Of a stretch of DNA of 64,000 nucleotides, positions 28,321 through 63,074 are shown piece by piece. Under the pieces are notes generated by a model, which was given only the letters and a program-made list of their open reading frames with translations, was not told the DNA's origin and did not search any database. Every line of letters starts with the position of its first letter. Within the stretch, counting starts at the first letter, position 1. The translations under genes and the position numbers were made by a program. The DNA lies in the NCBI GenBank assembly GCA_036172665.1, contig CM069876.1:39339001-39403000 (forward strand), given 5' to 3'. The stretch comes from Prosopocoilus inquinatus (lineage: Eukaryota > Arthropoda > Insecta > Coleoptera > Lucanidae).

Positions 28321-28329
28321 TATTAGTTT

Positions 28330-29759
28330 ACTATTGGTAACTTACACGAGCATAAATTACCAACGTATAGTACAGGGTGATCCACGGAAGTGGTCACTGC
28401 TTCAATAAATCTTTTCCTTTTCGAATGTCTGTGTTTGTGTCCAAAATTTTTGTGCCCTTTCTTTCACAAACAGATGCTGCATTTAATATTCTTCGAGGGA
28501 TTACTTGACTACGTCCTACGTACGAAAAAAAAAATTGTTTTAAGACCGGCAATTTAAGTAAATGAAAGTAGTCAAATGAAAAAGTTAATCTTTACAAGCA
28601 ATATAAATTTTATGTTATTTGTTATTTGTTATTCAGGGGAGTTCCGAGAATATCATATAAATTAAATCTGCATTATTAAACTCCCACTTACAGACGACCT
28701 AAAATACTTTCTAACCTTGATTTCAACGATAAGGCATTACATGCATATACCTATATATAATTGTTATAACTATCAGCTTGTTCAGGTTTCTTTCTTTTTT
28801 GCAAGCTTTACGGTAATTATATTGATCGGCTTTGTTAAACATGTACTGCTCAATGTTGAGGTCAAAACCAATAATGTACTTGCTTACAAACTTTCCCATC
28901 GTTAAGACACGTGAATTTTCGAAATGTGGATTCTCATTAAGTCAGAGTTGCGTGGCGGGTTCAAAGTCACAACAACGAATCGTACGATTAGATTTGGTCG
29001 TTTGTGTTTTGAAAAAAAAGTAAAATAAAAAATAGAACGACATTCAACTCGTGAACCCCCGATGTTTTGGATTCTCTGCGCGATAGTGATTACGTGTGGG
29101 GTTCAAAGTCGCGAAAGTCGCGCGAGATTCCGAGAAATTCTTCTGCAATTCACAATTTCGCAGATAAGAAATGTTTGAAATGAAAATGAAAAAAAAGAGA
29201 TCAGACGGCGAGGGCAATGTCATGATTTTTATTTTATCGCAGTTGTATAATTCAAGTACTCTTCCGATAAATAAATAAAATAAATAAAAAGTATACAAAT
29301 TAATAAATAAGAAGTATATATGTAAATTTGTATTTGAAAGTTGCTGGAGCGAAATGTAATTTTTTTATCATCTTAATTCCAGAATATCAAAAATATTCCT
29401 CCCTATCGAGTCTAATGGCTTTTGTAAACAGCAGTGATTTCCGTTTCTTTAAATTCTTTTTTAGAGTCGCATTAAAAGATTCAAATCAATTCAAATCGTT
29501 TTCTTTCTTAACTTAGGTTAAGACTTAAGCCGCCGTGAAACAGGCGGCTAATCAATACAACCATTCAGATATACAGTTTATAATAATCTATTAATTAGGA
29601 AGAAACTGGCGACGTTAAAAAAATTAAATTTGTGAAATTAAAGCGTCTACCAAAAGCAGATGCAAACCAAACTCAAAAGCAAACACCATTATTTGAGATT
29701 GGATTTGGTTTTCAAAATAAGATAACGGATAAATAGTGAGAAAACCCCTCGACCACATT
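28330..29759. other. Intergenic DNA between two retroelement relics
   Basis: No gene recognised. A compact hairpin AGCCGCC/GGCGGCT sits at 29529-29550. The phrase TACAGGGTGATCCACGG near 28371 resembles termini of small DNA transposons but has no visible partner. Confidence 0.35.
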
Positions 29760-29770
29760 AATTCACTGAA

Positions 29771-29813
29771 AGCGAATACGTATTTCGGTAACGAAGTTAC
29801 CATCTTCAGCGCT
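29771..29813 (-). ncRNA. Hammerhead ribozyme-like motif 3' of Penelope-like ORF
   Basis: On the minus strand: GCG, then the core CTGAAGA, one extra T, stem II GGTAAC-TTC-GTTACC (six perfect pairs), GAA, the self-complementary mini stem III ATACGTAT, T as position 17, then CGC closing stem I. This is a type I hammerhead layout. It lies about 120 bp downstream of the GIY-YIG ORF stop on the same strand, where Penelope-like elements carry their terminal repeat. The extra nucleotide before stem II and the short stem I (4 bp) lower certainty about activity. Confidence 0.6.
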
Positions 29814-29929
29814 AAACTGATATTAAACTTTAAAACAACAAATAAACTAAACTAGACTAGCTGCACTCCCCCCCTCACTTTCTTTGTACCGTATTATGCA
29901 TGCAAAGCAAACCGGGATTCTTCGAAAAT

Positions 29930-30651
29930 CTAAAGGTCGAAGAGGCGAGAAGCGGTCGGCCCGGACTTCTCCAAATTCATTAATCTATTCCTATTTTTGT
30001 GAATCTCCAAGCTTTCGAAAGAATCTAGGTTTGTTTTGTTATTAATTTGTTTGATTAAATCTATTTTATTTACCGAATGATTGTTTTCAAGCATGTGTAA
30101 GGCAACACTGGATTTATCAAAGCGTTTGTATTTTAAATGAGCCAAGTGTTCTTTGAATCTAATTTTTAAGGATCTTTTTGTTTGCCCTACATAAATTTGA
30201 TCACAATTTTTACAACTAATTTTATATATACCTGATTTATCCTCCGAATCTACTTTATCTTTTGGATTTCCCAGCAACGATTTTAAGCTGTTATTGTTGG
30301 TGTAAACTATTCTTAAACCTAATTTTTTAAAAATTGTATTCAACCCTTTAGTATATTGAGGATAAAACGGCATTTTTACAATTTTCTTATAATCTACCTC
30401 ACCTATTTTGTCAGATTTTAGTGTGGTTATTTTATTAATCTCTAATTTTTGTTTTTGTTTTCTAATAATGTTATAGATTACATCGGGTTGGTAACCATTG
30501 TACGTGGCGATTTTAATAATTTCTTGAAGTTCTTTACTATAATTAACAGTTGATAAAGGGAATGTCAGCATCCTATGCACTAAGAAATTTAAGGCCGCTA
30601 ATTTATATTGTTTGCAATGATTTAAGATAACGGGGTTACTGTCAGATTGGT
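29930..30651 (-). pseudogene. Penelope-like polyprotein fragment: RT end and GIY-YIG endonuclease
   Basis: The frame is open from about 30651 to the stop at 29930. It starts with YKLAALNFLVHRMLTFPLS, the thumb/linker region, and continues to the GIY-YIG nuclease: GIYKISCKNCDQIYVGQTKR then SLKIRFKEHLAH. This includes the GIY and YVG tyrosines, the catalytic Arg in the KIRFKEH helix, and the Cys-x-x-Cys (CKNC) typical of Penelope elements. A downstream Glu-containing ESLEIHK segment follows. It ends RLFDL. No internal stops in this part, but without RT it cannot be autonomous. Mapped Met starts are not real starts. Confidence 0.85.
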
Positions 30652-32604: not shown

Positions 32605-32719
32605 GAACAGATAAAACAGCGACATCTTACGCTCGCTTTTTGACCTAACATTGCAGTAGGATAGACAAATTGAAGCGGATTTGCTCCAATCAAAAACGAT
32701 TTGCAACAAAATTTTTGTT
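32605..32719 (-). mobile_element. Internally deleted copy of the hammerhead-carrying element, with 12-bp target duplication
   Basis: Minus-strand copy sharing both ends with the element at 55796-56475: it begins AAAATTTTGTTGCAAATCG and ends GTCGCTGTTTTATCTGTTC, including the AATTTGTCTATCCTACTGCA and AGGTCAAAAAGCGA phrases. The hammerhead portion is deleted. It is flanked by identical ATTATTATATAC at 32593-32604 and 32720-32731, an exact though low-complexity target duplication. Confidence 0.75.
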
Positions 32720-33054
32720 ATTATTATATACCTTTTTTGTTCCCTATTTTTCGGACTTTCCTGTTGGCCGATGGTACCAATTAATAAAAATTTGATGTCT
32801 CCTGGTGATTGGTTTTGGTTGAAAGGAACATGAAAAATATCTCGTACCCAAAATCTTTGACACTTTTCTCCCTTTGATAAGCCGCTTTTACGTGTCACTT
32901 TCATTCTTAGTTGGAAATGCATTCGCATGTCCTGCGTACGCTTTTTAAATTCTTTGATTTTATACGAATTTGTATACAGAATAAACAATAAAACGTCTTT
33001 CATTCATAATATTTACAATATAATAACAATTTCTGTCTTGCCTCCATCTTCCTT

Positions 33055-38783: not shown

Positions 38784-39094
38784 ATGCCGTCTGAGAAATC
38801 CATCTATCTGCCTGACAAGGCGCTCTCGAAAAACGCCTACGTCTCCACCGTCGCCCAATACAACACCCTGTACAACAAATCCCTGGATAACCCCGAGGAA
38901 TTCTGGGGGGAGATCGCCAGACAGTTCCACTGGGAGAACCCCATTAACTATGACAGGTTCTTCAGGTATAACTTCGACATCAGGAAAGGTCCAATTTACA
39001 CGAAGTGGTTCGATGGTGCCACCACCAACGTATCCTATAATGTCCTGGACAGGAACATAAGGAACGGGCACGGGGATAAAGTCGCCTTCTACTG
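38784..39094 (+). CDS. AcCoAS: AcCoAS exon 1
   Basis: Starts [20 protein letters not shown] and covers the N-terminal ACAS domain ([40 protein letters not shown]). It ends in phase 2 at TG|GTCAGT. The ATG at 38784 is chosen because MPxEKSIY is the start of insect orthologues. Confidence 0.95.
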
Positions 39095-42000: not shown

Positions 42001-45000
42001 AACCCAGCTTACAGATGTGTTGAGCAGGTTGCGTCTTCATTTAATGATTAGATTATATACAAACTTTCTAGTCTAATAGAAGTATTAATTACTTCTACAA
42101 TCAATTTATAATATTATTAAAGTTGTCTAAAAGATGACGATTAAAATTATTAATTAGATCTCATCGCTAAAAATATTGATATAGAAATAATAATTGTTAA
42201 ATTAAAGAACTTGTACGCAATTCAATTAACATCGCTTGAGTATGTAGGCAACCAAACTGGCATATCTGGAAATTGGACTGCCTCTACATTTGGTGAGCGA
42301 GTTTCATGTTTATTTTATTAATTAGCAATTGCAATAAGAGATATAAAAACAACCCAGAATTACGTAAAATTTGAATAAAGGAAATTGTACACTAAATATT
42401 CAGATTATTTAAAAAAAAGTTTACTTTACGAACGTAAAGCACAAGACAAGTTAACTGTCACGAATAACGCACATATATTTTGACAGAAAAAATAATTTAC
42501 GGATGAAACCCCTTTATGTAAGCAACCCTATTAGTACCGCTCGAAAAGGTAGGCAATTCAACTTACATTTCTGCTAATTGTGTTGTATCTACATTTAATT
42601 GGGCCTCATATTCAGCGTAGTAACAGCAGTTGCTACAATTTGGGACATTGAAATAATCTAGAATGGGTTAGAATTTAAATTTCAATCGAAATTATAAGAC
42701 TTTTTAGCAAAAAAATATTAGGATCTGTTTCAAAGAAGTTCATTTTTTTTTAAACCAATTGGATAAACCAACTAAACTAACAACAAAGCAAAAAATTATG
42801 CGTTAACAATAATTCGCCGGTTCCAATTCCGTGATTAATTAATCATCGAAGTATGTAGGCAACCCAGCTTACAAGTGTTTTAATTAGGATGTCTACTTGT
42901 TTGCTGACTGGGATTGAAGCCCTTGACCAACAAAGCAATACGGAGAGTTACTTTGAATTAATTAGAATTTAATTTATTTTGAACCAGAAGCGACTACAAC
43001 CACCCACGAAACTAATAAACTGTCCACACGATTAAAAGAAATAATTTTTATTATCAGAAATTGTACTAGTAATAGGAAACAAATTAGTTAAAATAAAATA
43101 AAGAAAAAAGATTCTCAAGAAAAATATTGCATTAGACTTTAGTAGACATTCATCAATTACGTAAGCAACTCAACTTGCACATCTGTTAGTTGGGTTGCCT
43201 ACGTATTTTCCTCATCTCCAGAACAGTAAAGTGAAATATAAGGAAGAAACTTAAAGGACATTTCCCTCAACCAAACAAACACATCTGATTGCAGTGTTTG
43301 ATTGATTTGATTGATACAATTAATAAATAAAGTATACAGGTTGAAAATTGATTAAATTAACGAAAGGAAAACGTAAAAAAATGTTCTGTCCTAAATGCTC
43401 GTATGTACATAAATACAAAAGAATGTTTGCCAAGTTGTTTTGTTATTGTCTTCTGACGACTAGTTTCTTGAATATTAATTATTGTTTTCCTAGTATTTTA
43501 TTTATGATATCAATATTATACAATAGGTACCTTCAAATACAACATGTTAAGTGAGGAATATGTAAATAAAAGCAAATACCACGTATTTCTAAGTTCACAA
43601 ACAGCAAATACGTATTTTAAAGACAAAACTGTCATCTTCAGTGTTTGTCGACCCAACGCAACGTAAGCACTGAAGATGATGATTTTGCTATTGAAATATG
43701 TAGGTATGTGTTCTGTCTAAGTAAGATTTTGTGCTTACAAGAAAATTAAAATAAAAGACTGTAATAATTACGTGCGTTTTTAGTAATAAGTTTTTCAAAC
43801 TTCTTTCTTTCATCACTCACCAATATCATGGATAAATCCATTGCAATTACTTGCATTCTGTACAGAACAAAATCAAGATTAATGCTGCAATTCTGAGCTC
43901 AATCGTAAGCATCGTAAGATATTATCGTGCCATTTAAATGTACAGGTCTTAAGTACCGAACGATGCTTACGATCAAGCTCAGAATTGTAGAATTAATCTT
44001 TTATGAGAAATTTCAATTTCTAAAATTTCTATTTTTAATATAAAAAAATAATGAGTTCATTCAAAATTAATGCCTAATTAATTGAGACTCTTTCTCAGAA
44101 TAGAATATGTGTAGTTTTGATAATAAAGTATGTCATTTTTAAATGTATTGCTTTTACAAAAAGGAAATAGGAGTATCTATTTATTTTCATAAAGTTATCG
44201 CTCGGTGATAATTGTAGAATTGCTGTAAAAAACAAAAGCTGAAAATATAATTTTTATTTACCTTTATCTTGACGTTTCGCAAAACGAGTTATTTGCTTCT
44301 TCAAAAAAGTTTTCTTTTTCGTATGAATAAGTTTTGCAAAAAATTAACGAAATAACATAAAAATGCAAAAAATAAAATGAATTTCCAATATCTTAACAAC
44401 ATAATTCTGTTAAAATTTTGTTTTTTTGTAATAAATTTAATCAAATTCAATAATAGTGAACTAAATATACTGAATCGTATGCTCAAGTAAACACTTCACA
44501 TCCTGTACAGGATGTTAACTGCGGAAGTTCAAGAGAACATCGCATAACATTTTATTTGTTTTCCAAAATAATAAAACTATAATAATTTGTTTTGAAATTC
44601 CATTTTGTTCTTATGATTTACGAAAAATTAATTAACACAACTTCTTACTGGTTATTTTTTTGTTAACTATTTTTACTATAACGTTCTCATTATTTCATTC
44701 CGTTTAAAATAATAAACAGGTTTGAAATTTACATTAAACACAGTATCAGCAGAAAATATTGTATAAATTAGTATGACGATATGCATTTCAAATGATGTTT
44801 TTTTTTTCTAATTAAAGAATGGAAAAATTACATCAAACACATGGATTTACAATGAACGAGTAAAATATGAAGGAATTTACTGACGCGTTCTGCTTTACGC
44901 TGCTTAGGTTCATAAACATATCTGCATATCATTTTCGTTTACGGTATTATCCAAATAAATATTTATCATGTGGACTGAGCTCTTACTGATTTAATTTTCA

Positions 45001-48000: not shown

Positions 48001-51000
48001 TATTTTCCATTAAACCACAATAAAGTTAACAGATGGCGCCACAGTCATTTTTCTGTAGTCCAAGAAAACAAAAGCGTTAGTTTCTCAGTAGTAATTATAA
48101 AGCTCTATAGATAGCGTGCTTATTTTCGTTCAAAGCAAAAATTCTAACGTGCTTGCTTCAATTCATTTCAAAGCGTTAAAAATAAAAAGATGGCATCTCC
48201 GTTTAAATATCGGGACATTAGATTTTCATGATAAACTTAAGTCGCGACGTCCTGCGATCAATCTTAATGCAATGACAGGTCAAAAAGCGATCCCAGGATG
48301 TCGTTACCTAAGTTTTTCATTAATTTTACGTCAAAACAAAGCTCGATAGATGTTATTAGTTTCGGAGAAATAGTTTTATTCTATATTTGTAAACGTTTTT
48401 CTTCTTACTATCCGTCTCACATTTTCGTGCAAGAAACCAACGTATTTTCCATTAAACGACAATTAAAGTTAACAGATGGCGCCACAGTTCAATCAGCATT
48501 CCTATTCGTTTGACCAATCAGATCCACTGAGTTCAATAATGTCCGAATTTTGTTTATTTTTGCTCTCTTTTTGTGTAGTCCAAGAAAACAAAGGCGTTAG
48601 TTTCTCAGTAGTAACTGTAAAGCTCGATAGATAGCGTGCTTATTTTCTTTCAAAGCAAAAACTCTAACGTGTTTGCTTCAATTCATTTAAAAACGTTAAA
48701 AATAAAAAGATGGCGTCTCCATTTAAATACCTGGACATTAGATTTTCAATGATAAACTTAAGTCGCGATATCCCGCGATCAATCCTAATGTATTATCAAG
48801 TCAAAAAGCGATCGCAGGATGTCGCTACCTAAGCTTTTCATTAATTTTACGTCGCAATTGCGAATATTCTCGGATAAATCGTTTTGGTTTACTATGCTTC
48901 TGCTGACGAAGCCCCAGACAGGGCTGAACCAGCGGTACAGAGGATGCTCGAGGGATCCATTGCAATCAAAACGATTTGCAAATTTAGATTTTTAGATTGA
49001 AGAAGATGAAATTACAGAAAAAAGTTAGGTCTCTTCGACTCAGTTGTGTCAAGCTTGTTTAAATTGAGTGGCTAGTTCGACGCTAGAGCCTCTGTGTTAA
49101 AACTTGAGCATTTATTTTTTCTTTTTAGGGAAGGTAACCACCCAGACGATTACAGCCGATTAACCTACAGAAAACTCCTCGAAGAAGTCTGCCGTTTCGC
49201 CAACGTCCTCAAGAGCAAGGGGGTGAAACGGGGAGACCGAGTCGCCGTCTACATGCCGATGATTTTGGAATCAATCGTCACCCTCCTCGCCTGCAGTCGA
49301 ATCGGAGCAGTACACTCGCTGGTGGTGAGTACTTCCGGCTGGCCCCATTTGCACACAATGTTACATTGTGTGAACGGCCTAAATTAAGCAATTATGTAAG
49401 TCGAGGAGGTCGAAGGTCAAATTCCGCGGCGGCAGTTTGCAGGATTTTCGGCGGATTCCTTCGCGGAGAGGATCCAGGATTGCGGGGCGAGGGTGCTGGT
49501 GACCGCCGATGGGGTTTGGAGAGGAGAGAAGCATCTGAGTTTGAAGGCCATCTGCGACGAGGCCATGGAGAAGTGTGCCAAAAATGGGCACAACGTCGAA
49601 TGTTGCGTCGTCGTTTCACATTTGTGCAGGGTCACATCTCCAAAGGGAACTCAACAGAATCAAAGCAACAAAGTAAGTTGAATGAATCAAAGTGTTCTTT
49701 TTTTCAGGGAAGTAATTAGTCAATCAGTTTTTTTTTTTTTTTTTAATTTAAAAATTATCTTTATTTTGACTATAATCGCTAATCGCATACATTTTACACA
49801 CCAGACGAGTTTCGTTACGCAATAATTCAAGCAGAGTTCATGTCTGATGATTTTTTTTTGCCACAAAGTTCACGGTGATATACGGCTTCTGTTTTATCTT
49901 TCTATATTTTCTATTTTCATTTTCGTTTTGTAAAGAATTACACAATTGAAACGGAAAATGAATGTTTCCTGATGGAAACGTTGCGAATAAAATTGATTAG
50001 GTACACTTGAACTTCGAAACCTAATTGTATTACTTATTTATCATTACCATAATAATACACTTGATTATATTATTTATTTTCCAAAACAAACAAAAACAAT
50101 CTGACGCAAAAATGTAGTAGCTAATTGTATTCGTTTCCTTACTTATAAGTAGGCTTAGGATAATTATGCATTTGTATACGCAAACGCATATTTTTTTAAA
50201 TAATTTTATAAATAGATGCATATTTTAATTCTTTAGGTCGCTAATACATAACTTGCTGCATTTTTGTTTCAATTGCAAATTTACCATTATTTCTTCCTAC
50301 CAAGTGCAAACCGACACGTTATAGCAGACAATCTGGACAATCAGTGTTCTAAAATCAGAAAACTTGGAAATAATAAGAGGATTAGCAGGGTATGGGCACA
50401 GTCTTCTCACCGGGTGTCGATCTAATCTAACCACTGCGCATTCTTCCACGATTCGATTTTTAAACGCCGCGAACAATTTAAATTTAAATTTTTGCGGCAC
50501 GCAACTTATCTCCGCTACAAGCAACATTAGAAGAAAACGATACACTTTGAAATCATAAATATACCCGCGCCCTTTGCCTATGTTTCAAGTTTCGTCCCGA
50601 TCGGCCCACAATTTATTCTTATTTCTTGACTAAATAATTTAAAATTAAAAAATGTGTTTTATAACAGAAAAATAAATATGCGTTAATGAAAGAACGCTAT
50701 TCCTTTTTAAAAGTTAATTTTTAGTGCATATTTTTGATGATTTTGGTGCATATTTGCATGCACATTTTGAAGTTGTTTAAAGCATAATCATCCTAAGTTT
50801 ACTTATAAGTTATGAGACCAACATCAGAGATTCTTAAGTTATATAACATAAACAAAAAAGTTCTTCAAGCGGAGTACTGGGGAATATTAAAATTAAAAGA
50901 AAGAATTCAGACTACTAAAAACTTTGTATTTTTTAATGTATCTCTTGTAAAGGGTGTCTTTTTTAACACGGTTTGATTAATGCGTATTGAATCCTCGCAT

Positions 51001-54000: not shown

Positions 54001-57000
54001 CCTTTATCTTGACGTTTCGCAAACCGGATTGATAAAACAAACAATCCGGTTTGCGAAACGTCAAGTTAAAGGTAAGAAAATTCTGTGTTTTAAAGGAACC
54101 ACAGTGATAGAAATTAAACAAAATTAAATAAATCAATTTCAAAATCGTCATCAAGTGCATTGTCCCCTTAGGTTCCCATGCAGGATGGTAGGGACGTATG
54201 GTGGCACGACGCGGTGCCCAGCGCCTCCACCAGTTGTTACCCCGAATGGATGCAAGCCGAGGACCCCCTCTTCATGTTATACACAAGCGGATCTACGGGC
54301 AAGCCGAAGGGGGTCCTACACACCACAGGGGGTTACCTAATATACGCCGCCACCACTTTCAAGTACGTCTTCGACTACAAACCAAACGACATTTATTGGT
54401 GCACCGCAGACATCGGCTGGATTACGGGGCACACTTACGTCGTGTACGGCCCCCTTGCAAACGCAGCTACCTCAGTATTGGTAAGAGATCAATTTCGCGC
54501 TTTTTTTCGAGTTTGGAAATTTGATATTCAGCCGCAAAGCAAACATGTGCACTTCATTAATTTTATTATTAAATTAGTTTCTTACTTATTTTATTAACTG
54601 CGTCGCAGTCTTATCTAATTGACAACAACATCTGTTCGTCAGATTTAACTTAAATAGTTCACATTCACACATCAATTAGATTTCGTAATATTGATGATGA
54701 TATTGATGATAAGCGGTGACCTTTAATAACGCAATTAGTAGACTGGTGGTATGTACTAGTTATGCAACGAATTTTTTTTTCTTCTGCAGTATGAAGGAAC
54801 ACCATTTTATCCGAATAACGACAGATTCTGGACTGTGATAGAAAAATACAAGGTCACTCAGTTTTACACCGCGCCGACCGCGATAAGGGCGCTGATGAAA
54901 TTCGAAGATGATCTGGTGACAAGGTTGGGGGGGATTCACCGGTCACCTTTTCGCCTTGCGTGACGCTTGTCTTGGTTTCAGGCATGACCTGTCGACTTTG
55001 CGCGTTCTTGGATCCGTTGGTGAACCGATTAACCCCGAGGCCTGGATGTGGTACTATAAGGTGGTGGGGAGGGAAAAGTGTTCCATCGTTGATACTTTTT
55101 GGCAGACGGAAACCGGAGGGCATGTCGTCACGTCCTTACCCGGAGCTATTCCCATGAAACCTGGATCGGCCGTAAGTATTATTTCCCGAAAAAAGAGAAA
55201 ATGTTTTGCTCAAAGAACTGCGAGCAAAAAGTAAAGGTTTCGGTTGTCCAAAAAAATTTTTAAGTTAACCAACAGTATATAGAATGTTTCCTTTCGAGTT
55301 GTAAGCAGATTATTTTCCAAAAATTTAATTAAAGAACCGCGGTCACAAAATAAAGTTTTCGTTTGTCAAAAAAAAACATTACGGAATTTTTAAGCTATTT
55401 TCATAAAAGCAACTATATACAGTATGTTTCCTTTCCTTTCGAGTTTGATGCTCGTTTTTGACATGCACTTACAAATCCCTCAAGAGTACGGCGATCGCTT
55501 TTATTTTGCATCATCTTTTGTTTCATAGGATTGACATTCTTGTCCTGTCTCCGCCTTTTTCCAAGCTGCAGTTAAACAGTTGGTATGCAGTAATTGCAGA
55601 ATTTACATTTCAGAGCCGCACAGAAAAAATTAAGGCCGTATAGAGTGTTGCAAGAATCAGAATCGTTCTTGTGAAATTCGGAATTGCTTTTGAAAATAGT
55701 TAGGATTCGCAATCACTCTATTTAAAAAAAAAAGTCTTGCACTTTATAATTTCTTTTTAATAAAGAAAACCATACTGCAAAACCTTGAGATTATGGAAAA
55801 ATTTTGTGCAAATCGTTTTTGATTGCAGTGAGAACCTCGAGCAGCCTCTGGACAGCTGTTTCAGCCCTGCTTGGGGCTTCTTCAGCAGAAACGTAGCTCG
55901 ACATTCCCACCGCAGACCAAAAACGACTTGCCCAATTTATTCGCAAATGCAATGTAAGAATGATGAACATATAAAATAGCGACATCTTACTATCGCTTTT
56001 TGACCTAACATTGCAGTAGTATAGACAAATTGAAGCGGGATTTGCTCCTAATGAGTCCCCCATGCAAGGCGGCCATGCTTGCTGTCAAAGCATAATGATT
56101 TGTCTATCCTACTGCAATGTTAGGTCAAAAAGCGATAGTAAGATGTCGCTATTTTATATGTTCATCATTCTTACATCGCATTTGCGAATAAATTGGGCAA
56201 GTCGTTTTTGGTCTGCGGTGGGAATGTCGAGTTACGTTTCTGCTGAAGAAGCCCCAAGCAGGGCTGAAACAGCTGTCCAGAGGCTGCTCGAGGTTCTCAC
56301 TGCAATCAAAAACGATTTGCACAAAATTTTTCTAAAATCTTTCATTATGCTTTGACAGCAAGCATGGCCGCCTTGCATGGGGGACTCATTAGGAGCAAAT
56401 CCCGCTTCAATTTGTCTATCCTACTGCAATGTTAGGTCAAAAAGCGATAGTAAGATGTCGCTATTTTATATGTTCTTGAGATTATGCTTGAAATCGAAGT
56501 TTTATTTTATTGATTTTGAATCGTCTACTCTCTTGTTACTGACGTAAACAGAAAATAATTTCAATATTGTATAAGCGGGCCTTTTATTTACTTTTTGTTG
56601 TCATGAGTTTTGACAGACAGTTTTGAGTTTAATTTTTGTGAAAATTACCGACCCTGATTAATCAACTAATTCATAACTCTTTCAAACTCTTTCGAGGAGG
56701 TCCCTGAGCTCAGAAACTGTACAACAAATAAAATTCCTCATGTGCTACAATAGATTTATTGCGCACTAATTTATATTCATACAGAAAAAGAATAAATAAA
56801 AAATATATTGTTTATTTAGGCCCGGTCTTTTCATCTCTGAGTAACTTTAACCGTTGATTAATTCCTATAGAAACAATTATCTCTACAATTGTAATTATGG
56901 GAATAAATCAACAATTAAAGTTACTCAGAGATGAAAAGACCGGGCCTTAGTTGCCTATATTGTAGGAGCAAGTGTAACTTGTTTTTGGAATAAGTCTAAG

Positions 57001-60000
57001 GTCCAGTTTTACAATTGCAGCTCAACTTTGAGCTGAGGTTTAAACCCTTAGCAACGATTATTTCAACAAGTGTTGTGAAGGATTTAAGCTTCGGCTCAAA
57101 GTTAAACCTCATTGTAAAACTGGGCCTTAAAGGTAAAAAGTTTTCAAAGTTGCATCTCTTTAAATGAATTGATCATTATATGCAACTGTATTGTTGATGT
57201 GACAGACAGAAATGTAACATATTTCTCCATTTTCCGATTACATTTTGTTTTCGTTTTTTGTAAAAAGAAAATCACCAAGTTTCTCTTTTGTAGGTACATT
57301 TTGCAGAAATATTTTAGAAATCCTTGAGTTAGATAACACTTTCGAGTTTTCGAACTTCTACGATTTGTACTTCCAAATTGTCTCTGATGCATCTTTATTA
57401 GCAAAATTGGTACCTTCTGGGTTAATTTAGTACCCTTTTTTGTATATTACATTTCTGTACGCTGGTGTAACACTGTCGTTACAACTATTTAACAATAAAA
57501 TTGGGTTTCGTCGCCTTCGTCAAACTTTAATCAGTTTAGGCAACGCCCACTTCATATAGGTCCGATTTATTAGGTGGGAGAATATCCCGACTTCAAAACT
57601 GATTCATCTGAAACACGATCCAGCACAGATATTCACCATTTTAAAAGTTATTTTTCCGTCCTTATTAGTAAGATAGATTTTCAAAGCTCAACAGCGAAAC
57701 GCTTCCGTCGCAATCCCCAGAAACTGAATGTCTGATATTCCTACGTGATGACCCAAGCCTGTTTTTCAAGACGGTGTTGTTTAGGAAATCGTATCTTTTT
57801 CTTCTTTTATCAAAAAGAAACAAAACTAACCTGAACTTTTCAATGTAATACTTCTTAAAATATATGTATAGCTACTAACGTATGCCACTGCATAAAATCA
57901 GAAAAAGCATCGCATCCACGAGTCATTTTAGATTATTTCTTTACGCTATATGTCTTCAGTAAGTGACCAATCAGTAACAGTACCGAAGATGTTCTGCGTG
58001 GTTTTTGGATGAAACGTTTTTTACACAGGAATTTAAACAGAAATGTTAGCCTAAGATTTACCTTTATTTAGTATTGTTAGGGCACGAACATGCCAAAGAT
58101 GTCTCACTGTTCACCCTCGATATTTAGATCGCGCTCCATAGCTTGATATAAAACAAACGCCTAGATTTAAATGAAATAGTGCATGTCGAAGAAGCGCGCG
58201 ACCATTCATCTTCGAAATGCACGGTTCTATTTAAAACTGTACGTTTGTTTTACATCGAGGTGTTATCGCGGTATCGAGCGCGACCTAAACATCGAGGGTG
58301 AACAGCGAGGCATCTTCGACACGTTCATACCCTTAAGTATACACCACGTGCATTTTAAAATTAATTTGCGGTTATTTAATTCTTTGTTATGCACAAAGTT
58401 TTTAAGCCACTTAATTACGACGTTAAAAAATAGAGAGTAATAATTACAACAGCGAACCGTTTATGGTACACAAAACGGAAGCAAAAACATTTTCTGTGGC
58501 GAATGTACGCATAAGTAAAAGAGCTTATCGCTTTTGCCATCAAGCACACGCAATGTTTAACTGAAATAAATAGTTCTTTGTTTATTTTTCTTCAAGGATG
58601 GAAATAATTCGATTTTAAACCCAGTTATCAGCTGTAATGATTTGATTATGTAAAGCGATTTTATTGTTGAAAAAAAAACATTGGCATTTAAGGTCAACGA
58701 TTTGCGCCATAACTAGAGAGCGGAGGGGATCATAGTTTAGTTTTCTTTAATTTTTTTTTGAGTGACGGGAATTAGGGATTGCAAAGTATTGATTGAATAA
58801 GAATAAGAATGAAAAACACAAAAGATCGCACCTTTTTGTTTAAAATTCATAAAATTCCAAGAGAGAGAAACAACATTGTTCGTGCGGGAAAAAAAGGCTA
58901 AGAAAACGTAATAATTCTAAAGTGGAATACTTGGGGATTCCCCGAAGAAAAGTGATATTTTAGATTATTTTTTTGAGAGGTGACAAAATTGCAGAATATA
59001 AATTGCAGAATGAAATTTTCATGTTTTTAATTTAGAAAAAAATTCCGGCCATTTTCCAGGCGCCATGAAAGTGAAGTGAAAAGAAGAGAAGGTAAAATTT
59101 TTAAAGTAAAACATTAAGGATTCACAGAAAACAAAGCAAGTTTTCGATTAATTTATTAAACGACAGGAATTACAAAGAAATTAAGAGGACGCACATTTTT
59201 TGTTACAAATTAAAAAAAAAATTCCCGGAGTTTTCGTTCATACAGAGAGAAAAAGTAGGTCAAAAATATCTCCCTTGAAACAAGTGACATTTCTTTAAAA
59301 GGCGGGAATTAAGGGTTGCGAAACTAAACAAAAATGCAGAACGAAACACTGATTTTTTATTTCTTTTTAAATTCGAAAAAAAATCCGGGCGTTTTCCAGG
59401 CGCCATGAAAGTGAAGTGAAAAGAAAAGGAGGTAAAATTTTTAAAGTAAAACATTAAGGATTCACAGAAAACAAAGCAAGTTTTCGATTAATTTATTAAA
59501 CGACAGGAATTACAAAGAAATTAAGAGGACGCACATTTTTTGTTACAAATTAAAAAAAAAATTCCCGGAGTTTTCGTTCATACAGAGAGAAAAAGTAGGT
59601 CAAAAATATCTCCCTTGAAACAAGTGACATTTCTTTAAAAGGCCGGAATTAAGGGTTGCGAAACTATACAAAAATGCAGAACGAAACACTGATTTTTTAT
59701 TTCTTTTTAAATTCGAAAAAAAATCCGGGCGTTTTCCAGGCGCCATGAAAGTGAAGTGAAAAGAAAAGAAGGTAAAATTTTTAAAGTAAAACATTAAGGA
59801 TTCACAGAAAACAAAGCAAGTTTTCGATTAATTTATTAAACGACAGGAATTACAAAGAAATTAAGAGGACGCACATTTTTTGTTACAAATTAAAAAAAAA
59901 ATTCCCGGAGTTTTCGTTCATACAGAGAGAAAAAGTAGGTCAAAAATATCTCCCTTGAAACAAGTGACATTTCTTTAAAAGGCCGGAATTAAGGGTTGCG

Positions 60001-63000
60001 AAACTATACAAAAATGCAGAACGAAACACTGATTTTTTATTTCTTTTTAAATTCGAAAAAAAATCCGGGCGTTTTCCAGGCGCCATGAAAGTGAAGTGAA
60101 AAGAAAAGGAGGTAGAAAAACATAAAACTTTTAAAAGAGAGAGTTAAGGATATACAGAAAACAAGTCAAGTTTTCGATTAATTGGTTAACCGACTTGAAT
60201 TACAAGAAAAATTAAGAAAAAAAATCCCGGAGTTTTTGCTCGTACAGAGAAAAGTAGGCCAAAAATATCTTCCAATGAAAGTTCGTTTTCATTTGTTCAA
60301 AGTTTTCAAGTTCCGTAAATTTACTATCATTATTTCAGGAGCCTTCCAGAACTTGGAAGTTAAAGCTTTCGAATTAAAAAAAGATACTTTTTCTCTAGGA
60401 AACTTTCAGAAGCTTGAAAACGAGAGAAAATTTCTTGTTCGTTAAGAAAATATGTATAAAATGAAAGAGTTCATTAATGAAAGCTTGTTTTGATTTGTTT
60501 AAGAGCTTTCAGGTGCGTTCAGGATTGTGTTTCTTTTTGAGCAATTTTCGGAAACACAAGAATGAGAATAAAATTCTTGCTAGCGTAGAGAAGCTTTTTT
60601 GATTGCTTAAAAACTCCTAAAAAAATTCATCTAAGGTCATTCGGACCGCAGCCAATGTAGAGTTTGCGCAAACACATCGTTACGTTATAAAAGCAACCGT
60701 TATAAAATAGAAAATGCGATTTCTGTTTAAAAACATACAGAAGAAGCATCATTTTCAAAAGTTGCCTAAATTTCTACATACATTTTTCAAGTTTCGTGCT
60801 TTTCTCTTCCGTTCTGAAATATTAACTACTTTTCTAAGTTATAACGATGCATTTATAACGTAACGGTTCATTTGCGCAAACCACATAATGAATCAAGATT
60901 TTTCTCTTCCGGAATTTTGTACACACTGGGTGGTCGAAAAATAATTGGACACAAAGCTTTGGCGGATTTCTGACATTAAAATATTTAGATTTAACTAAAC
61001 TCGCTCGTGACTTTTTCACGGAAATAAAATTAGTATTCCTAAATGACCTAAATGAAAACGTTTTTTTCTTAACCAAAAAGATAAAAGCAAAGTACTTGTA
61101 CTGGTCTTTCATAGTGTCTTGTAATAATTTGTGTGTTCTTGACCAAATATCTAAACAAATCTTTTATAATCGATAAACATCAATTATTATTTATCGGACA
61201 GGACAAAATCGAACAATATCATGAAAACCACGTTGCATTCAAAGATAAAATAGCAAATATCGCACGAAAATGGTTAACTTTAGCGCTATTAAACAAGCAC
61301 ATCGAATTAGTTTAAAAGTGTTGAGAGAATAACTTGCTTTTATTAAAAGCTCCAAAATTCTGCACACAGAAAAATTCTAAAGCAAGAATGATTCTCTGCG
61401 TAGCGCCCTCTATCTGATATATTAAAATTGAGAACAAATTATTATTTCCCGTCTCTAAAAATCCCCGTGTGTCAGTTTTTAAGGTAATATGTCAAAAATT
61501 CGAAGAATTATCGAAGAAATTTGAAATTAATTAAATTTCATAACAGAACTTTAAATTTAAAGTTACTTTAAACTAAAAATTACAAAAAATTTTGTTACAA
61601 TTTATTCAACTTGTCCAATTTATTCGCAATAAATTGGACAAGTTGAATAAATTGCAACAAAATTTTTTGTATTTTTTTAGTTTAAAGTCAGTCGTTTTTG
61701 GTTTGCAGTGGGAATGTCGAGCTAGGTCTCTGCTGATGACGTCCAAAACAGGGCTGAAACAGCTGTTCGAGGTTTTCACTGCAATCAAAAACGATTTCCA
61801 ACAAAAATTTTTAAAACTTTCATTTTGCTTTGACAGCAAGCATGGCCGCCTTGCATGGGGGACTTAGGCTTACGAACAAATCCGCTTCAATTTGTCTATC
61901 CTACTGCAATGTCAGGTCAAAAAGCGATCGTAGGATGTCGCTGTTTTATCTGTTAAAAAAGTACATTTGATTTTTTCACCTCCTGATTAATTTATCTACC
62001 TGGTATTATCCTTGGATGTCGATTATAATTTTCGAGGATATTATCTCGCAGATAAATCTTCAGGAGGTGGAAAAATCGGTCCTATGTGAAGTGTTTAGGT
62101 AAAATCGGTGGAAAAATCGGCCCTATGTGAAGTGTTTAGGTAAAATCTAAATATTTTGATGCCAGTAATTTACTGTTGCTCTGTGTCCATTACTTTTAGA
62201 CCGCCTGTATATTTAGGTACTTATCACACACTTAATCAACATGTTTGAGATGACATGATCCAGACTACTTCTGTTATCAAAAAAGCTTAATTCCGCCGCT
62301 CTCTGGTTATAGTAACGCAACGTAATGAAAATTAATAATGGTCTCAGCATTTTCTCTTTTAATATAAATTCCAGGCGATGCCATTCTTCGGAGTCCAACC
62401 CTCGTTATTAGACGAGTCCGGGAAAGAGATCGAAGGTGAAGGTGAAGGCTACCTAGTGTTCAGCAAGCCCTGGCCCGGAATGATGCGATCCCTCTTTAAT
62501 AACCACGATCGTTACGAGACTACATACTTCTCGAAATTCCCCGGCTATTACTGCACGGGAGACGGTCGGTAAAAATCAATTTTGCGCGTCGAGACGCCTG
62601 CGCTTACGCCCCCCCTTTATTATTTCAGGAGCACGGAGAGACGCCGACGGGTATTTGTGGGTGACCGGAAGGGTCGATGATATGCTGAACGTTTCCGGTC
62701 ATTTAATGTCGACGGCGGAGATCGAGTCGGTCCTCACGGAGCACAGCGGCGTCGCCGAGGCCGCCGTCGTCGCCAAACCCCACTCCGTGAAAGGCGAATG
62801 TCTTTATTGCTTCATCACCACCACGGAAAGCGTCAAATTCGACGGGAAACTCCTGGCGGAACTTAAGCAGCACGTGCGGGAAAGGATAGGGCCCTTCGCC
62901 CAACCCGATGTTATACAGAACGCCCCTGCGCTGCCGAAAACCAGGTCCGGGAAAATCATGAGGAGGATACTGAGGAAGATCGCAGTGAATGACAGAAACG

Positions 63001-63074
63001 TCGGAGACATCAGCACGCTGGCTGATAGCTCCGTCGTCGAGCTCTTATTCACGACTAGACCTGCTAATGCTTAA
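38784..63074 (+). CDS. AcCoAS: Acetyl-CoA synthetase, AMP-forming (gene span, joined exons)
   Basis: Converts acetate, ATP and CoA to acetyl-CoA via acetyl-AMP; the ACSS2-type enzyme acts in cytosol and nucleus. Exons 38784-39094, 49129-49324, 49436-49672, 54172-54480, 54790-54923, 54982-55171, 62375-62564 and 62629-63074 join in frame to 670 aa, the usual animal length. Motifs: [11 protein letters not shown] (residues 285-295, ATP phosphate loop), [32 protein letters not shown], the hinge [13 protein letters not shown] (535-547) and [15 protein letters not shown] with the catalytic, regulatory Lys631. No mitochondrial presequence is seen; [13 protein letters not shown] matches cytosolic insect forms. 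All eight splice junctions are GT-AG. Introns 1 (10 kb) and 6 (7.2 kb) hold most of the repeats in this part of the window. Confidence 0.97.
39420..40110. repeat. Four tandem units of about 170-180 bp in AcCoAS intron 1
   Basis: The phrase TGCAAACTA(A)GGCCACACT recurs at about 39449, 39617, 39794 and 39976. Each copy is followed by CACAATTATTGTTTTGACAA and TGGAATATTACAAGGGTGAT. The long minus-strand frame across it simply reflects the repeat. Confidence 0.8.
40130..41250. repeat. Three tandem units of about 380-430 bp in AcCoAS intron 1
   Basis: The phrase GACGTGCAAACAAACTTTCT recurs at 40251, 40681 and about 41063, with surrounding blocks such as TTAAATTGGCAATTAATTAT and GATGGCTTATTATTATTTCA also repeated in order. 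Confidence 0.75.
41290..43210. repeat. Seven dispersed copies of a conserved stem-loop in AcCoAS intron 1
   Basis: Copies at about 41299-41340, 41550-41594, 41991-42036, 42241-42287, 42548-42593, 42851-42896 and 43158-43206. The general form is GTAGGCAACCCA.CTT then ACAGATNTGTT and AAGTGGGTTGCCTAC, in which the ends pair. In the last copy about 17 pairs form between TACGTAAGCAACTCAACT and AGTTGGGTTGCCTACGTA. Sequence between copies is far less conserved. Function unknown. Confidence 0.7.
43603..43710. ncRNA. Inverted pair of degenerate hammerhead-like motifs
   Basis: Minus strand: CACTGAAGATGACAG then AAAATACGTATTTGC at 43603-43645, sharing the CTGAAGA core and the ATACGTAT mini stem III with the Penelope-associated motif at 29771-29813. 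Plus strand: CACTGAAGATGATG then GAAATATGTAGG at 43669-43710. Both have damaged stem II or the GAAA box, so they are probably inactive remnants. Confidence 0.45.
43888..43987. mobile_element. MITE-like hairpin in AcCoAS intron 1
   Basis: Arms CAATTCTGAGCT.ATCGTAAG and CTTACGATCAAGCTCAGAATTG, about 28 bp each, around a 44-bp loop. No coding capacity. Confidence 0.65.
44269..44315 (-). ncRNA. Hammerhead-like motif, one core change
   Basis: Minus strand: TTGAAGA (C3 replaced by T), an extra A, stem II GCAAA...TTTGC, then GAAACGTC. The GAAACGTC tail is shared by the palindrome at 54000-54073. It looks like a decayed Penelope-type motif. Confidence 0.4.
44320..46050. other. AcCoAS intron 1, AT-rich, no feature recognised
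   Basis: No exon or RNA gene seen. A TACAGGGTGATATATGG phrase near 45778 resembles the one near 28371. Confidence 0.35.
46054..46181. mobile_element. MITE hairpin, CCGATTTCTTCATCT family
   Basis: Ends CTCCGATTTCTTCATCT and AGATGAAGAAATCGGG are inverted, and ATAAATTTATCTGCCAGG pairs with CCTGGCAGATAAATTTAT inside. Terminal sequence resembles the elements at 56819-56946 and 61970-62079. Confidence 0.7.
46190..47355. other. AcCoAS intron 1 with a dispersed GGTCCTAACATCCGCCCCTG repeat
   Basis: The phrase CGGTCCTAACATCCGCCCCT with about 60 bp of context at 46253 recurs at about 51175 on the same strand. A pyrimidine-rich run lies at about 47095-47165. Otherwise nothing recognised. Confidence 0.4.
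47357..47472. mobile_element. MITE-like hairpin with TTTTGGCGCTAAAAA arms
   Basis: GAAATTTTGGCGCTAAAAA and TTTGTCATTGGT on the left pair with ACCAATGACAAAGC and TTTTTAGCGCCAAAATTTC on the right. Arms of about 36-45 bp. Confidence 0.7.
47860..48870. repeat. Two tandem units of about 445 bp with AGATGGCGCCACAG
   Basis: Unit 1 from about 47897 and unit 2 from about 48343 share in order GTAAACGTTTTTCT, CGTCTCACATTTTCGTG, AACAGATGGCGCCACAG, AGTCCAAGAAAACAAA and AAGTCGCGA. The short frames here follow the repeat. Confidence 0.75.
48896..48943 (+). ncRNA. Degenerate hammerhead motif of the mobile family
   Basis: CTTCTG, CTGACGA, stem II AGCCC-CAGACA-GGGCT, then GAACC instead of GAAAC, and CAGAGG closing stem I. 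Cores and stems I and II are intact, but position A15.1 is changed, so cleavage is probably lost. It sits in a copy of the same repeat as 55796-56475 (preceded by GTCAAAAAGCGATCGCAGGA). Confidence 0.55.
49129..49324 (+). CDS. AcCoAS: AcCoAS exon 2
   Basis: Encodes [20 protein letters not shown] then [20 protein letters not shown] and [20 protein letters not shown]. Acceptor CTTTTTAG, donor GTGAGT, phase 0 end. Confidence 0.96.
49436..49672 (+). CDS. AcCoAS: AcCoAS exon 3
   Basis: Encodes [20 protein letters not shown] then [20 protein letters not shown] and an end at QQNQSNK before GTAAGT. The GFSxxSxAxRI and VTADGxxRGxK motifs are conserved in acetyl-CoA synthetases. Acceptor is GGCGGCAG. 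Confidence 0.94.
49680..51340. other. AcCoAS intron 3, first part
   Basis: AT-rich with no exon seen. The 51175-51240 segment repeats the 46253 sequence (see that entry). Confidence 0.35.
51400..52700. repeat. Recurring RATAGATGGCRCYA motif region in AcCoAS intron 3
   Basis: Copies near 51424, 51611, 51657, 51790, 51953, 52253, 52509 and 52671, each preceded by AAA(N)TC or AAAGCTCG and spaced about 150-300 bp. The same motif occurs at 46410, 47872, 48029, 48348 and 48474. Between copies, phrases such as GTTTGACCAA and AGAAAACAA also recur. Confidence 0.6.
52720..53999. other. AcCoAS intron 3, last part
   Basis: No exon seen. The CCCCCTAGGGGGACGCGCCC and CAGTTTGGGAAACACCGG phrases near 53595-53638 look like a transposon terminus without a visible partner. 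Confidence 0.35.
54000..54073. repeat. Near-perfect palindrome ending ACCTTTATCTTGACGTTTCGC
   Basis: ACCTTTATCTTGACGTTTCG and CGAAACGTCAAGTTAAAGGT pair through AACCGGATTG and CAATCCGGTT, leaving a loop of about 10 nt. Each arm carries the GAAACGTC tail also seen at 44269-44315, suggesting two fused Penelope-type ends. Confidence 0.75.
54172..54480 (+). CDS. AcCoAS: AcCoAS exon 4: ATP-binding loop
   Basis: Encodes [40 protein letters not shown] and [20 protein letters not shown]. Contains the AMP-binding signature of the ANL superfamily. Acceptor CCCTTAG, donor GTAAGA, phase 0 both ends. Confidence 0.97.
54790..54923 (+). CDS. AcCoAS: AcCoAS exon 5
   Basis: Encodes [20 protein letters not shown] then [20 protein letters not shown] and DLVT, ending in phase 2 before GTTGGG. 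The following intron is only 58 bp. Confidence 0.96.
54982..55171 (+). CDS. AcCoAS: AcCoAS exon 6
   Basis: Encodes [40 protein letters not shown] and [20 protein letters not shown] then GSA. WQTETGG lies at the acetate and adenylate pocket. Acceptor TTTCAG, donor GTAAGT. Confidence 0.97.
55845..55891 (-). ncRNA. Intact type I hammerhead ribozyme motif (minus-oriented copy)
   Basis: Exact reverse complement of the motif at 56237-56283: stem I TTTCTG/CAGAGG, core CTGAAGA, stem II AGCCC/GGGCT, GAA, mini stem III ACAGCTGT, C at the cleavage site. All invariant core positions are present. Confidence 0.75.
56237..56283 (+). ncRNA. Intact type I hammerhead ribozyme motif
   Basis: Order: stem I 5' TTTCTG (56237-56242), core CTGAAGA (56243-56249), stem II AGCCC-CAAGCA-GGGCT (56250-56265), GAA (56266-56268), self-complementary mini stem III ACAGCTGT (56269-56276), C17 (56277), stem I 3' CAGAGG (56278-56283). 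Stem I can extend past an internal loop through CGAG and CTCG. Predicted cleavage follows 56277. All invariant hammerhead nucleotides are met. The very short stem III is the form reported for Penelope and retrozyme hammerheads, which work best as dimers. Confidence 0.78.
56819..56946. mobile_element. MITE with perfect 32-bp ends and TTA target duplication (PIF/Harbinger-like)
   Basis: Starts GGCCCGGTCTTTTCATCTCT and ends with its exact complement. Flanked by TTA on both sides (56816-56818 and 56947-56949). A 3-bp TTA duplication with GG-starting ends suggests PIF/Harbinger. No coding capacity; the perfect arms imply recent insertion. Confidence 0.8.
57000..57126. mobile_element. Second MITE with GGYCCAGTTTTACAAT ends
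   Basis: Left end GGTCCAGTTTTACAATTG, right end CATTGTAAAACTGGGCC, with an inner inverted pair GCTCAACTTTGAGC / GCTCAAAGTT. Flanks are TAA and TTA rather than identical. It lies 53 bp from the previous MITE. Confidence 0.65.
57130..58078. other. AcCoAS intron 6, no feature recognised
   Basis: No exon, RNA or repeat seen in this AT-rich stretch. Confidence 0.35.
58079..58334. mobile_element. Palindromic MITE-like element
   Basis: AGGGCACGAACATGCC..AAGATG and GTTCACCCTCGATATTTAGA..GCGCTC on the left pair with GAGCGCGACCTAAACATCGA, GGGTGAAC and CATCTTCGACACGTTCATAC on the right. An inner ACAAACG pair continues the fold. Frames here are by-products. Confidence 0.7.
58730..60450. repeat. 340-bp tandem array with three near-identical units
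   Basis: CGCCATGAAAGTGAAGTGAA recurs at 59061, 59401, 59741 and 60081, exactly 340 bp apart each time. Central units differ at only a few bases; flanking units (before 59040 and after 60110) are diverged. The repeated minus-strand frames with MFYFKNFT starts are copies of the same non-coding unit. Confidence 0.88.
60660..60880. mobile_element. MITE-like element with GCGCAAAC ends
   Basis: GTTTGCGCAAACACATCGTTA and CGTTATAAA on the left pair with TTTATAACGTAACGGTTCAT and TTGCGCAAACC on the right, about 200 bp apart. Confidence 0.55.
61567..61685. repeat. Palindrome at the head of a hammerhead element copy
   Basis: AACTAAAAATTACAAAAAAT through CAACTTGTCCAATTTATT folds onto AATAAATTGGACAAGTTG through ATTTTTTTAGTTT, arms of about 57 bp with a 3-nt loop. 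The inner part matches the AATAAATTGG(G/A)CAAGT segment of the hammerhead element. Confidence 0.75.
61690..61956 (+). mobile_element. Copy of the hammerhead-carrying element
   Basis: Shares with 56098-56475 the GGGAATGTCGAGCTA phrase, the hammerhead core, GCAATCAAAAACGATTT, GACAGCAAGCATGGCCGCCT, AATTTGTCTATCCTACTGCA and the end GTCGCTGTTTTATCTGTT. The hammerhead (61725-61770) has CTGATGA and GAAAC intact. Its stem II is weakened (CGTCC/GGGCT), and about 11 nt of stem I 3' strand are deleted, so it should not cleave. Confidence 0.75.
61970..62079. mobile_element. MITE hairpin of the CCGATTTTTCCACCTCC family
   Basis: GATTTTTTCACCTCCTGA and GATAATTT..CCTGGTATTATCCT on the left pair with GGATATTATCTCGCAGATAA and TCAGGAGGTGGAAAAATCGG on the right. 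A roughly 40-bp direct repeat of AATCGGYCCTATGTGAAGTG follows up to about 62145. Confidence 0.65.
62375..62564 (+). CDS. AcCoAS: AcCoAS exon 7
   Basis: Encodes [40 protein letters not shown] and [12 protein letters not shown]. It ends in phase 1 before GTCGGT; a second GT 5 bp on would not give the conserved GDGAxRDxDGY join. Confidence 0.96.
62629..63074 (+). CDS. AcCoAS: AcCoAS exon 8: C-terminal domain
   Basis: Encodes [40 protein letters not shown] and [20 protein letters not shown], ending [10 protein letters not shown] and TAA at 63072. This is the mobile C-terminal lid; the Lys in SGKIMRR is the adenylation-site Lys, acetylated and controlled by sirtuins in the family. Confidence 0.97.

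What the first reader, a model, noticed from the sequence alone, without database searches (positions are those of the whole stretch)
55796..56475. Mobile element with intact hammerhead ribozymes in 312-bp units and an exact target duplication
Seen: two 47-nt motifs that satisfy the type I hammerhead consensus, in opposite orientation; a 312-bp period; an exact 11-12 bp flanking duplication (CTTGAGATTATG). Known: retrozymes are non-autonomous retroelements with one hammerhead per tandem unit, processed to unit-length circular RNAs; animal versions have very short stem III. Inference: this is an insect retrozyme family and should yield circular RNA of about 312 nt.
Basis: partly seen in the sequence, partly recalled or inferred. 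Interest (0 to 1): 0.92.

Follow-up and report, generated by a model that had tools for sequence, protein, structure and literature searches.

The report
Ribozyme element inserted from both ends
A small mobile element carrying hammerhead-ribozyme sequences, in a likely insect genome, has copies that mostly begin and end at two fixed points on opposite strands between duplications of about 12 bases, the same pattern as Penelope retrotransposons there, so a Penelope enzyme likely copies its RNA into both sides of a DNA cut, which would answer how such elements move.

Summary
In detail: element 55796-56475 has two intact type I hammerhead sequences in opposite orientation, a 312-bp period and an exact 12-bp target duplication. 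Rfam stays below threshold, but across 128 genomic hammerhead hits the core varies mainly at the two positions the consensus leaves free (N7, H17).

Of 38 insertions read in the genome, 34 are inverted inside, and 28 start on the minus strand at unit position 54-65 and end on the plus strand at 193-204. Junctions are scattered, arms run up to about 6.7 units, and target duplications peak at 12 bp. A young Penelope-like element (PLE) in the same genome makes the same insertions: head-to-head, one short and one tailed end in 38 of 38 determinable head-to-head cases, duplications peaking at 12 bp, and the same target consensus AAC-N12-GTT.

Best reading: a non-LTR retrozyme inserted by a PLE-type enzyme that cuts both strands and primes reverse transcription from both ends. 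PLE help for animal retrozymes had been proposed in print; this is structural evidence for it. Self-cleavage, circular RNA and PLE use are untested. A LINE control could not be run, and the PLE end shares no sequence with the retrozyme.

The parts
55796..56475 (.). whole element: about one inverted unit followed by 1.21 direct units
55784..55795 (.). left target-site duplication CTTGAGATTATG, preceded by AAC
56475..56486 (.). right target-site duplication CTTGAGATTATG (first C shared with the element end)
55796..56097 (-). left arm: reverse complement of the unit, from unit position 55 at the flank inward (unit numbering starts at 56278)
56098..56475 (+). right arm: unit positions 133-312 then 1-198, ending at the second fixed end
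56227..56291 (+). type I hammerhead ribozyme sequence, predicted cleavage after 56277
55837..55901 (-). second type I hammerhead sequence, predicted cleavage 55851/55850
56331..56338 (+). unit positions 54-61: inferred reverse-transcription start 1 (left ends of most insertions)
   Evidence: in an unpaired stretch of the predicted circular fold
56158..56165 (+). unit positions 193-200: inferred reverse-transcription start 2 (right ends of most insertions)
   Evidence: in an unpaired stretch of the predicted circular fold
32605..32719 (-). short family copy: inverted piece from unit position 54, then direct piece to position 198; duplication GTATATAATAAT at 32720-32731 and 32593-32604
61690..61954 (+). 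family copy with hammerhead variant CTGATGA and the same right end; a palindrome lies upstream (about 61580-61680)
48779..48993 (+). old family copy with a decayed hammerhead (CTGACGA); fragment of another at 48258-48332
29729..30623 (-). 5'-truncated Penelope-like element with GIY-YIG endonuclease ORF, the likely type of mobiliser; 11-bp duplication CCGTTATCTTA at both ends, read by eye

Best explanation
A 312-nt hammerhead retrozyme, predicted to exist as a self-cleaved RNA (likely circular), is likely inserted by a Penelope-type reverse transcriptase/endonuclease that would cut both DNA strands 12 nt apart and prime reverse transcription of the RNA from both cut ends, giving the head-to-head copies seen here. 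Shown from sequence: the two fixed ends on opposite strands, the scattered inversion junctions, arms of more than one unit, duplications peaking at 12 bp, the target consensus AAC-N12-GTT, and the same set of features in a young PLE of the same genome. Inferred: a symmetric cut (N^GTT on each strand) leaves two 12-nt 3' overhangs; one primes at unit position about 197 and the other at about 58; each cDNA runs round the RNA for a variable distance; the two cDNA ends are then joined, often through 1-4 shared bases. Untested: ribozyme activity, RNA circularity, and that PLE protein acts on this RNA.
For: Retrozyme: 40 insertions read out of 50 loci; 2 dropped because their flanks repeat those of others, leaving 38. 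Left end on the minus strand at unit 54-65 in 28 of 38, right end on the plus strand at 193-204 in 35 of 38 (orientation was set by nearness to 198, so this count is partly by construction), both in 28, inversion inside in 34. Flank match of 10 bp or more in 27 of 38, lengths 11:1, 12:16, 13:4, 14:5, 15:1, against 10 of 1406 mismatched pairs. Six older loci, about 77-81% identical: 6 of 6 have an end at unit 54-58, and 2 of 6 have both ends. PLE of the same genome: 42 of 44 neighbouring hit pairs under 8 kb lie -/+ (3' ends outward), none +/-; one short and one tailed end in 38 of 38 determinable of 39 head-to-head insertions examined, duplication lengths 11:5, 12:15, 13:6, 14:6, 15:1, 16:4, 19:1. 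Target consensus at exact-12-bp sites: retrozyme (16) AAC 36 of 48 letters and GTT 30 of 48; PLE (15) 33 of 45 and 24 of 45; no other register exceeds 23. PLE hammerhead cleavage to short end 51 nt and to tailed end 91 nt; retrozyme start 1 is 54-61 nt after its cleavage site. PMC11167929 (parts 1-2 of 4): a PLE protein cleaves and extends both strands in vitro and starts reverse transcription at two internal sites that explain the tail; it puts the main site 111-118 into the ORF and the cut 26 in, i.e. 85-92 nt after the cut by my arithmetic. Hammerhead core intact in 117 of 128 hits.
Against: The PLE end and the retrozyme unit share no sequence beyond chance (360 of 500 shuffles score as high), so recognition would have to be structural or by another PLE family. 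No LINE control could be obtained (20 requests unanswered). 10 of 38 insertions lack one or both ends in the stated ranges; 4 have no inversion; 11 lack a flank match of 10 bp or more in the windows (for one of these, L002, one search shows 12 bp). Units within one arm are not always identical, which fits a multimeric RNA or template switching better than one monomer circle. Covariation support for the RNA fold is weak. Rfam below threshold.
Confidence: 0.7

Rival explanations
1. Retrozyme inserted by a LINE with ordinary twin priming: the second target strand anneals by chance inside the RNA and primes a 5' inversion.
For: Twin priming gives 5' inversions with target duplications (recalled). 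LINE reverse transcriptase fragments exist in the window (RVT_1).
Against: The second start is fixed at unit 54-65 in 28 of 38, not scattered; inversion is in 34 of 38; duplications peak at 12 bp; no poly(A) or simple-repeat tail at the right end; target consensus and architecture match the PLE.
Confidence: 0.13
2. Head-to-head copies arise by self-priming (snap-back) of a single cDNA, as proposed for Penelope copies in Adineta vaga.
For: PMC3846280 (passages) argues so from palindromes at inverted junctions. A palindrome lies at the window copy near 61580-61680, and 4 of 36 retrozyme junctions join nearly the same unit position (within 10; list).
Against: The other 32 of 36 junctions join different unit positions, and the two outer ends differ (54-65 against 193-204), which a snap-back of one cDNA would not give.
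Confidence: 0.07
3. A palindromic master element (a DNA or RNA unit that already contains the inversion) is copied as such.
For: Copies share the same two ends.
Against: Inversion junctions, arm lengths and number of units differ from insertion to insertion.
Confidence: 0.04
4. The hammerhead sequences are passengers without activity in a SINE-like element.
For: Rfam below threshold; the best fold hides the core; A-U in place of the usual G-C at the base of stem II (recalled preference).
Against: Core intact in 117 of 128 hits; variation concentrated at N7 (A 117, C 6, T 5) and H17 (C 116, A 11, T 1, no G), the positions a working hammerhead tolerates.
Confidence: 0.12

Closest known systems
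Metazoan non-LTR retrozymes with type I hammerheads (PMC7229834; parts 1-4 of 6 read)
   Same: Type I hammerhead once per short unit (312 bp; reported range 150-450), GC 43%, tandem runs, duplications longer than 4 bp, no LTR features, many copies.
   Different: Insertions are mostly head-to-head with two fixed ends and 12-bp duplications; the parts read describe tandem arrays and leave the mobiliser open, naming PLEs as a strong candidate. RNA not tested here.
Penelope-like elements, canonical RT + GIY-YIG (PMC11167929, parts 1-2 of 4; PMC3846280, passages)
   Same: Head-to-head copies, two 3' ends of which one carries a tail, hammerhead near the end, start sites about 50 and 90 nt after the hammerhead cut, duplications, AT-rich targets, both strands extended in vitro.
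   Different: The retrozyme codes for no protein, its two starts lie 58 and 197 nt after the cut, and it shares no end sequence with the PLE of this genome. The A. vaga passages report duplications of 8-10 bp and explain inversions by self-priming.
Plant LTR retrozymes (PMC4918200, listing only; described in PMC7229834)
   Same: Non-autonomous elements with hammerheads.
   Different: Type III hammerheads, LTRs and 4-bp duplications, according to PMC7229834.

Membership tests
Metazoan non-LTR retrozyme | type I hammerhead with intact core | tested here: met
   core and helices present on both strands; 117 of 128 genomic hits intact, a few loci counted twice; Rfam score below gathering
Metazoan non-LTR retrozyme | short tandem units of 150-450 bp, low GC | tested here: met
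   312-bp unit, GC 0.433; arms up to 6.74 units
Metazoan non-LTR retrozyme | dispersed copies with target duplications longer than 4 bp | tested here: met
   27 of 38 insertions with 10 bp or more
Metazoan non-LTR retrozyme | no coding capacity | tested here: met
   no ORF of 110 aa or more overlaps the element
Metazoan non-LTR retrozyme | self-cleavage and unit-length circular RNA | not testable with these tools
   no RNA data; predicted circular fold only
Mobilised by a PLE | PLE with RT and GIY-YIG present and recently active | tested here: met
   RVT_1 and GIY-YIG; the 40 scored of 1148 candidates are 99-100% identical; open frames up to 795 aa listed
Mobilised by a PLE | same insertion architecture, duplication length and target motif as that PLE | tested here: met
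Mobilised by a PLE | shared end sequence with the PLE | tested here: not met
   no similarity beyond chance
Mobilised by a PLE | PLE protein uses retrozyme RNA | not testable with these tools
   needs biochemistry
Penelope-like element (the element itself) | RT/GIY-YIG ORF | tested here: not met
MITE or other TIR DNA transposon | terminal inverted repeats matching at both ends | tested here: not met
   outer ends read GAAAAATTTTG and, reverse-complemented, GAACATATAAA; the internal inversion has no fixed junction

The most novel reading that the evidence does not exclude
Animal retrozymes are inserted by Penelope enzymes that make a symmetric 12-nt staggered cut at AAC-N12-GTT and copy one ribozyme RNA, probably a circle, from both cut ends at once, entering at two fixed points on either side of the hammerhead arm and running round it for a variable number of turns: a two-ended, rolling-circle form of target-primed reverse transcription.
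Probability: 0.5. Interest if true: 0.88.

Novelty: new variant of a known kind. Interest (0 to 1): 0.76.

Why it matters
How animal retrozymes move has been open: the 2020 study names PLEs only as a candidate (PMC7229834, part 4). Here the ends, the inversions, the duplication length and the cut motif of the non-autonomous element match those of a young PLE in the same genome, which makes the link directly testable with purified protein. The retrozyme also gives a cleaner read-out of two-strand priming than PLEs do, because its two starts lie at clearly different unit positions. I found no report of head-to-head retrozyme insertions in the listings; that library lacks most subscription journals.

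Tried and rejected
Rfam as proof of the ribozyme: below threshold (in one search one old copy, L055, gave Hammerhead_1 at 21.5 bits against 34, while L065 and L054 gave no hammerhead). MicroRNA matches follow the long inverted repeat and were set aside.

Sequence relation between PLE end and retrozyme: none found. Two arms from two different RNAs, or from one: undecided (mean distances within arm 0.0118, between arms 0.0127, between insertions 0.0189; between-arm larger in 12 of 30). Covariation of the fold in 15 old segments: few double changes (8 cells) against 123 broken ones. Viral contigs: one pattern scan, no match.

Not obtained: the LINE control (all unanswered) and a search with the 3' end alone (all unanswered). 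The 38 insertions therefore come from the best-scoring full-unit matches and lean towards young, long copies. The 39 PLE insertions were chosen because they are head-to-head.

Full report
What is there. The element at 55796-56475 contains a hammerhead sequence on each strand (56227-56291 plus, 55837-55901 minus), with a 2-bp stem III and predicted cleavage after GTC at 56277. An exact 12-bp duplication, CTTGAGATTATG, flanks it. It is not a plain tandem: from left to right it is one unit in reverse (55796-56097), then 1.21 units forward (56098-56475). I number the 312-bp unit U1-U312 from the base after the cleavage site (56278). The element lies between exons of an acetyl-CoA synthetase gene (ACAS_N at 38658-39137, AMP-binding at 54178-54597, AMP-binding C-terminal at 62655-63074), so it is probably intronic. 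The window holds other copies at 32605-32719 (minus, with its own exact 12-bp duplication), 61690-61954, 48779-48993 and a piece at 48258-48332.

Is the ribozyme real? Rfam does not reach its thresholds. Among 128 full-length hits in the loci held (45 distinct; a few loci are counted twice, since the window and L001 are one place and L015/L005 and L047/L006 share flanks), the core is intact in 117. Position N7 is A 117, C 6, T 5; position 17 is C 116, A 11, T 1 and never G; each other core position departs in at most 3 hits. This is how a working hammerhead family would vary. Against it, the predicted best fold pairs the core with stem III sequence and beats the hammerhead by 6.0 kcal/mol without tertiary contacts, and the base of stem II is A-U. 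Activity is untested.

The family. A search of the window's own genome (649.6 Mb) with the unit gave 155 matches from 40 scored of 478 candidates; a relative in the window (48180-49000) gave 3551 candidates, 40 scored. These are lower bounds and first-look counts.

The architecture. I read 40 insertions in 50 loci and dropped 2 whose flanks repeat those of others (L015, L047), leaving 38. I oriented each so that the end nearer U198 is on the right. Then 35 of 38 end on the plus strand at U193-204 (partly by construction), 28 of 38 begin on the minus strand at U54-65, and 28 do both; 12 of 312 positions would be hit 4% of the time by chance. Of the 10 exceptions on the left, L023 is cut by the locus end and shows U55 at its other end, L012 is preceded by another copy, and L014 and L042 begin near the same point by eye; the rest (L003, L006, L022, L028, L045, L049) do not fit or are truncated. 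L003 and L022 fit at neither end. Inversion is present in 34 of 38. The inner junctions are scattered over the unit; 19 of 36 share 1-4 bases and 12 have gaps. Arms run from 0.11 to 6.74 units. Left-right flank matches of 10 bp or more occur in 27 of 38 (11:1, 12:16, 13:4, 14:5, 15:1), against 10 of 1406 mismatched pairs. Six older relatives (77-81% identical) all have an end at U54-58, and two have both ends.

The partner. The window carries a truncated PLE at 29729-30623 (minus; GIY-YIG). In the genome its DNA gave 1148 candidates, and the 40 scored are 99-100% identical; its protein gave 150 scored of 4556 candidates. A longer frame carries RVT_1 and GIY-YIG, and the named relatives in the 120 listed are arthropods, among them the beetles Tribolium, Aromia and Molorchus and the lacewing Chrysoperla. 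Neighbouring PLE hits under 8 kb apart are 42 in -/+ order, one ++, one -- and none +/-. I examined both ends of 39 head-to-head PLE insertions (9). One was undeterminable; in all 38 others one end is short (0-4 nt of tail) and the other carries a tail of 35-41 nt. Duplication lengths are 11:5, 12:15, 13:6, 14:6, 15:1, 16:4, 19:1; longer values include bases shared with the element. The PLE has its own minimal hammerhead: its cut lies 51 nt before the short end and 91 nt before the tailed end.

The cut site. At insertions with an exactly 12-bp duplication, the empty site reads AAC-N12-GTT. Retrozyme (16 of 38): AAC 36 of 48 letters, GTT 30 of 48; PLE (15 of 38): AAC 33 of 45, GTT 24 of 45. Other registers reach at most 23 and average 11.5-13.2. 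Exact triplets are fewer: AAC 6 of 16 and 8 of 15, GTT 3 of 16 and 2 of 15. The rule used to bound a duplication biases the innermost letters (C and G) slightly, not the others. A symmetric motif is what an enzyme acting alike on both strands would leave: each strand cut before GTT, 12 nt apart, giving two 3' overhangs.

How it most likely works. PMC11167929 (parts 1-2 of 4 read) shows that a purified PLE protein cleaves and extends both DNA strands, and that reverse transcription starts at two internal RNA sites that define the tail. Applied here: the two overhangs prime on the retrozyme RNA at about U197 and U58; both cDNAs run through the hammerhead site and round the unit; they are joined where they stop. 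In the predicted circular fold both starts lie in unpaired stretches (48-69, 186-210) of the loop between the hammerhead arm and the other arm, though pairing probabilities there are mixed. Start 1 lies 54-61 nt after the hammerhead cut, close to the 51 nt of the PLE short end. Because arms exceed one unit and cross the cleavage site, the template is a circle or an uncleaved multimer; units within an arm are often but not always alike, so I cannot choose between them.

What speaks against. No sequence is shared between PLE end and retrozyme. The LINE control did not complete 20 times. The sample favours young full-length copies. Covariation is weak. The PLE family studied may be only a relative of the true partner.

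Place among known systems. It meets the tested features of metazoan non-LTR retrozymes (PMC7229834, parts 1-4 of 6), where PLEs are named as a strong candidate for mobilisation. Head-to-head PLE copies with a tail on one end are known (PMC3846280, passages), there explained by self-priming; only 4 of 36 retrozyme junctions look like that. What is new is the two-ended structure in a retrozyme and the shared cut motif. Hence: new variant of a known kind.

Noticed in passing
29729-30623 minus: Truncated copy of a very young PLE family (the 40 scored genome copies 99-100% identical), with a minimal hammerhead at 29809 and an 11-bp duplication.
   Followed up: yes
L060, L069-L076, L081-L140: PLE insertions always pair one short and one tailed end (38 of 38 determinable head-to-head cases), suggesting that each of the two starts is tied to one target strand.
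   Followed up: partly
43594-43702: Two weak matches to the PLE hammerhead region in head-to-head order (71% and 76%), possibly a relic of an older PLE insertion.
   Followed up: no
61580-61680: Near-perfect palindrome with a short loop at the start of the retrozyme copy, taking in what looks like flanking DNA; a possible snap-back event.
   Followed up: no
56805-56960 and 57024-57103: Two further inverted repeats (74-nt arms at 82%, 39-nt arms at 77%) just right of the element, MITE-like.
   Followed up: no
L005 and L015; L006 and L047: Insertions on contig C5 about 9.3 Mb apart share flanks, which points to segmental duplication; both pairs have one partner near 31.65 Mb and one near 40.92 Mb.
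   Followed up: no
27092-28327 minus: LINE-like reverse transcriptase fragment (RVT_1), meant as a control for insertion structure.
   Followed up: no
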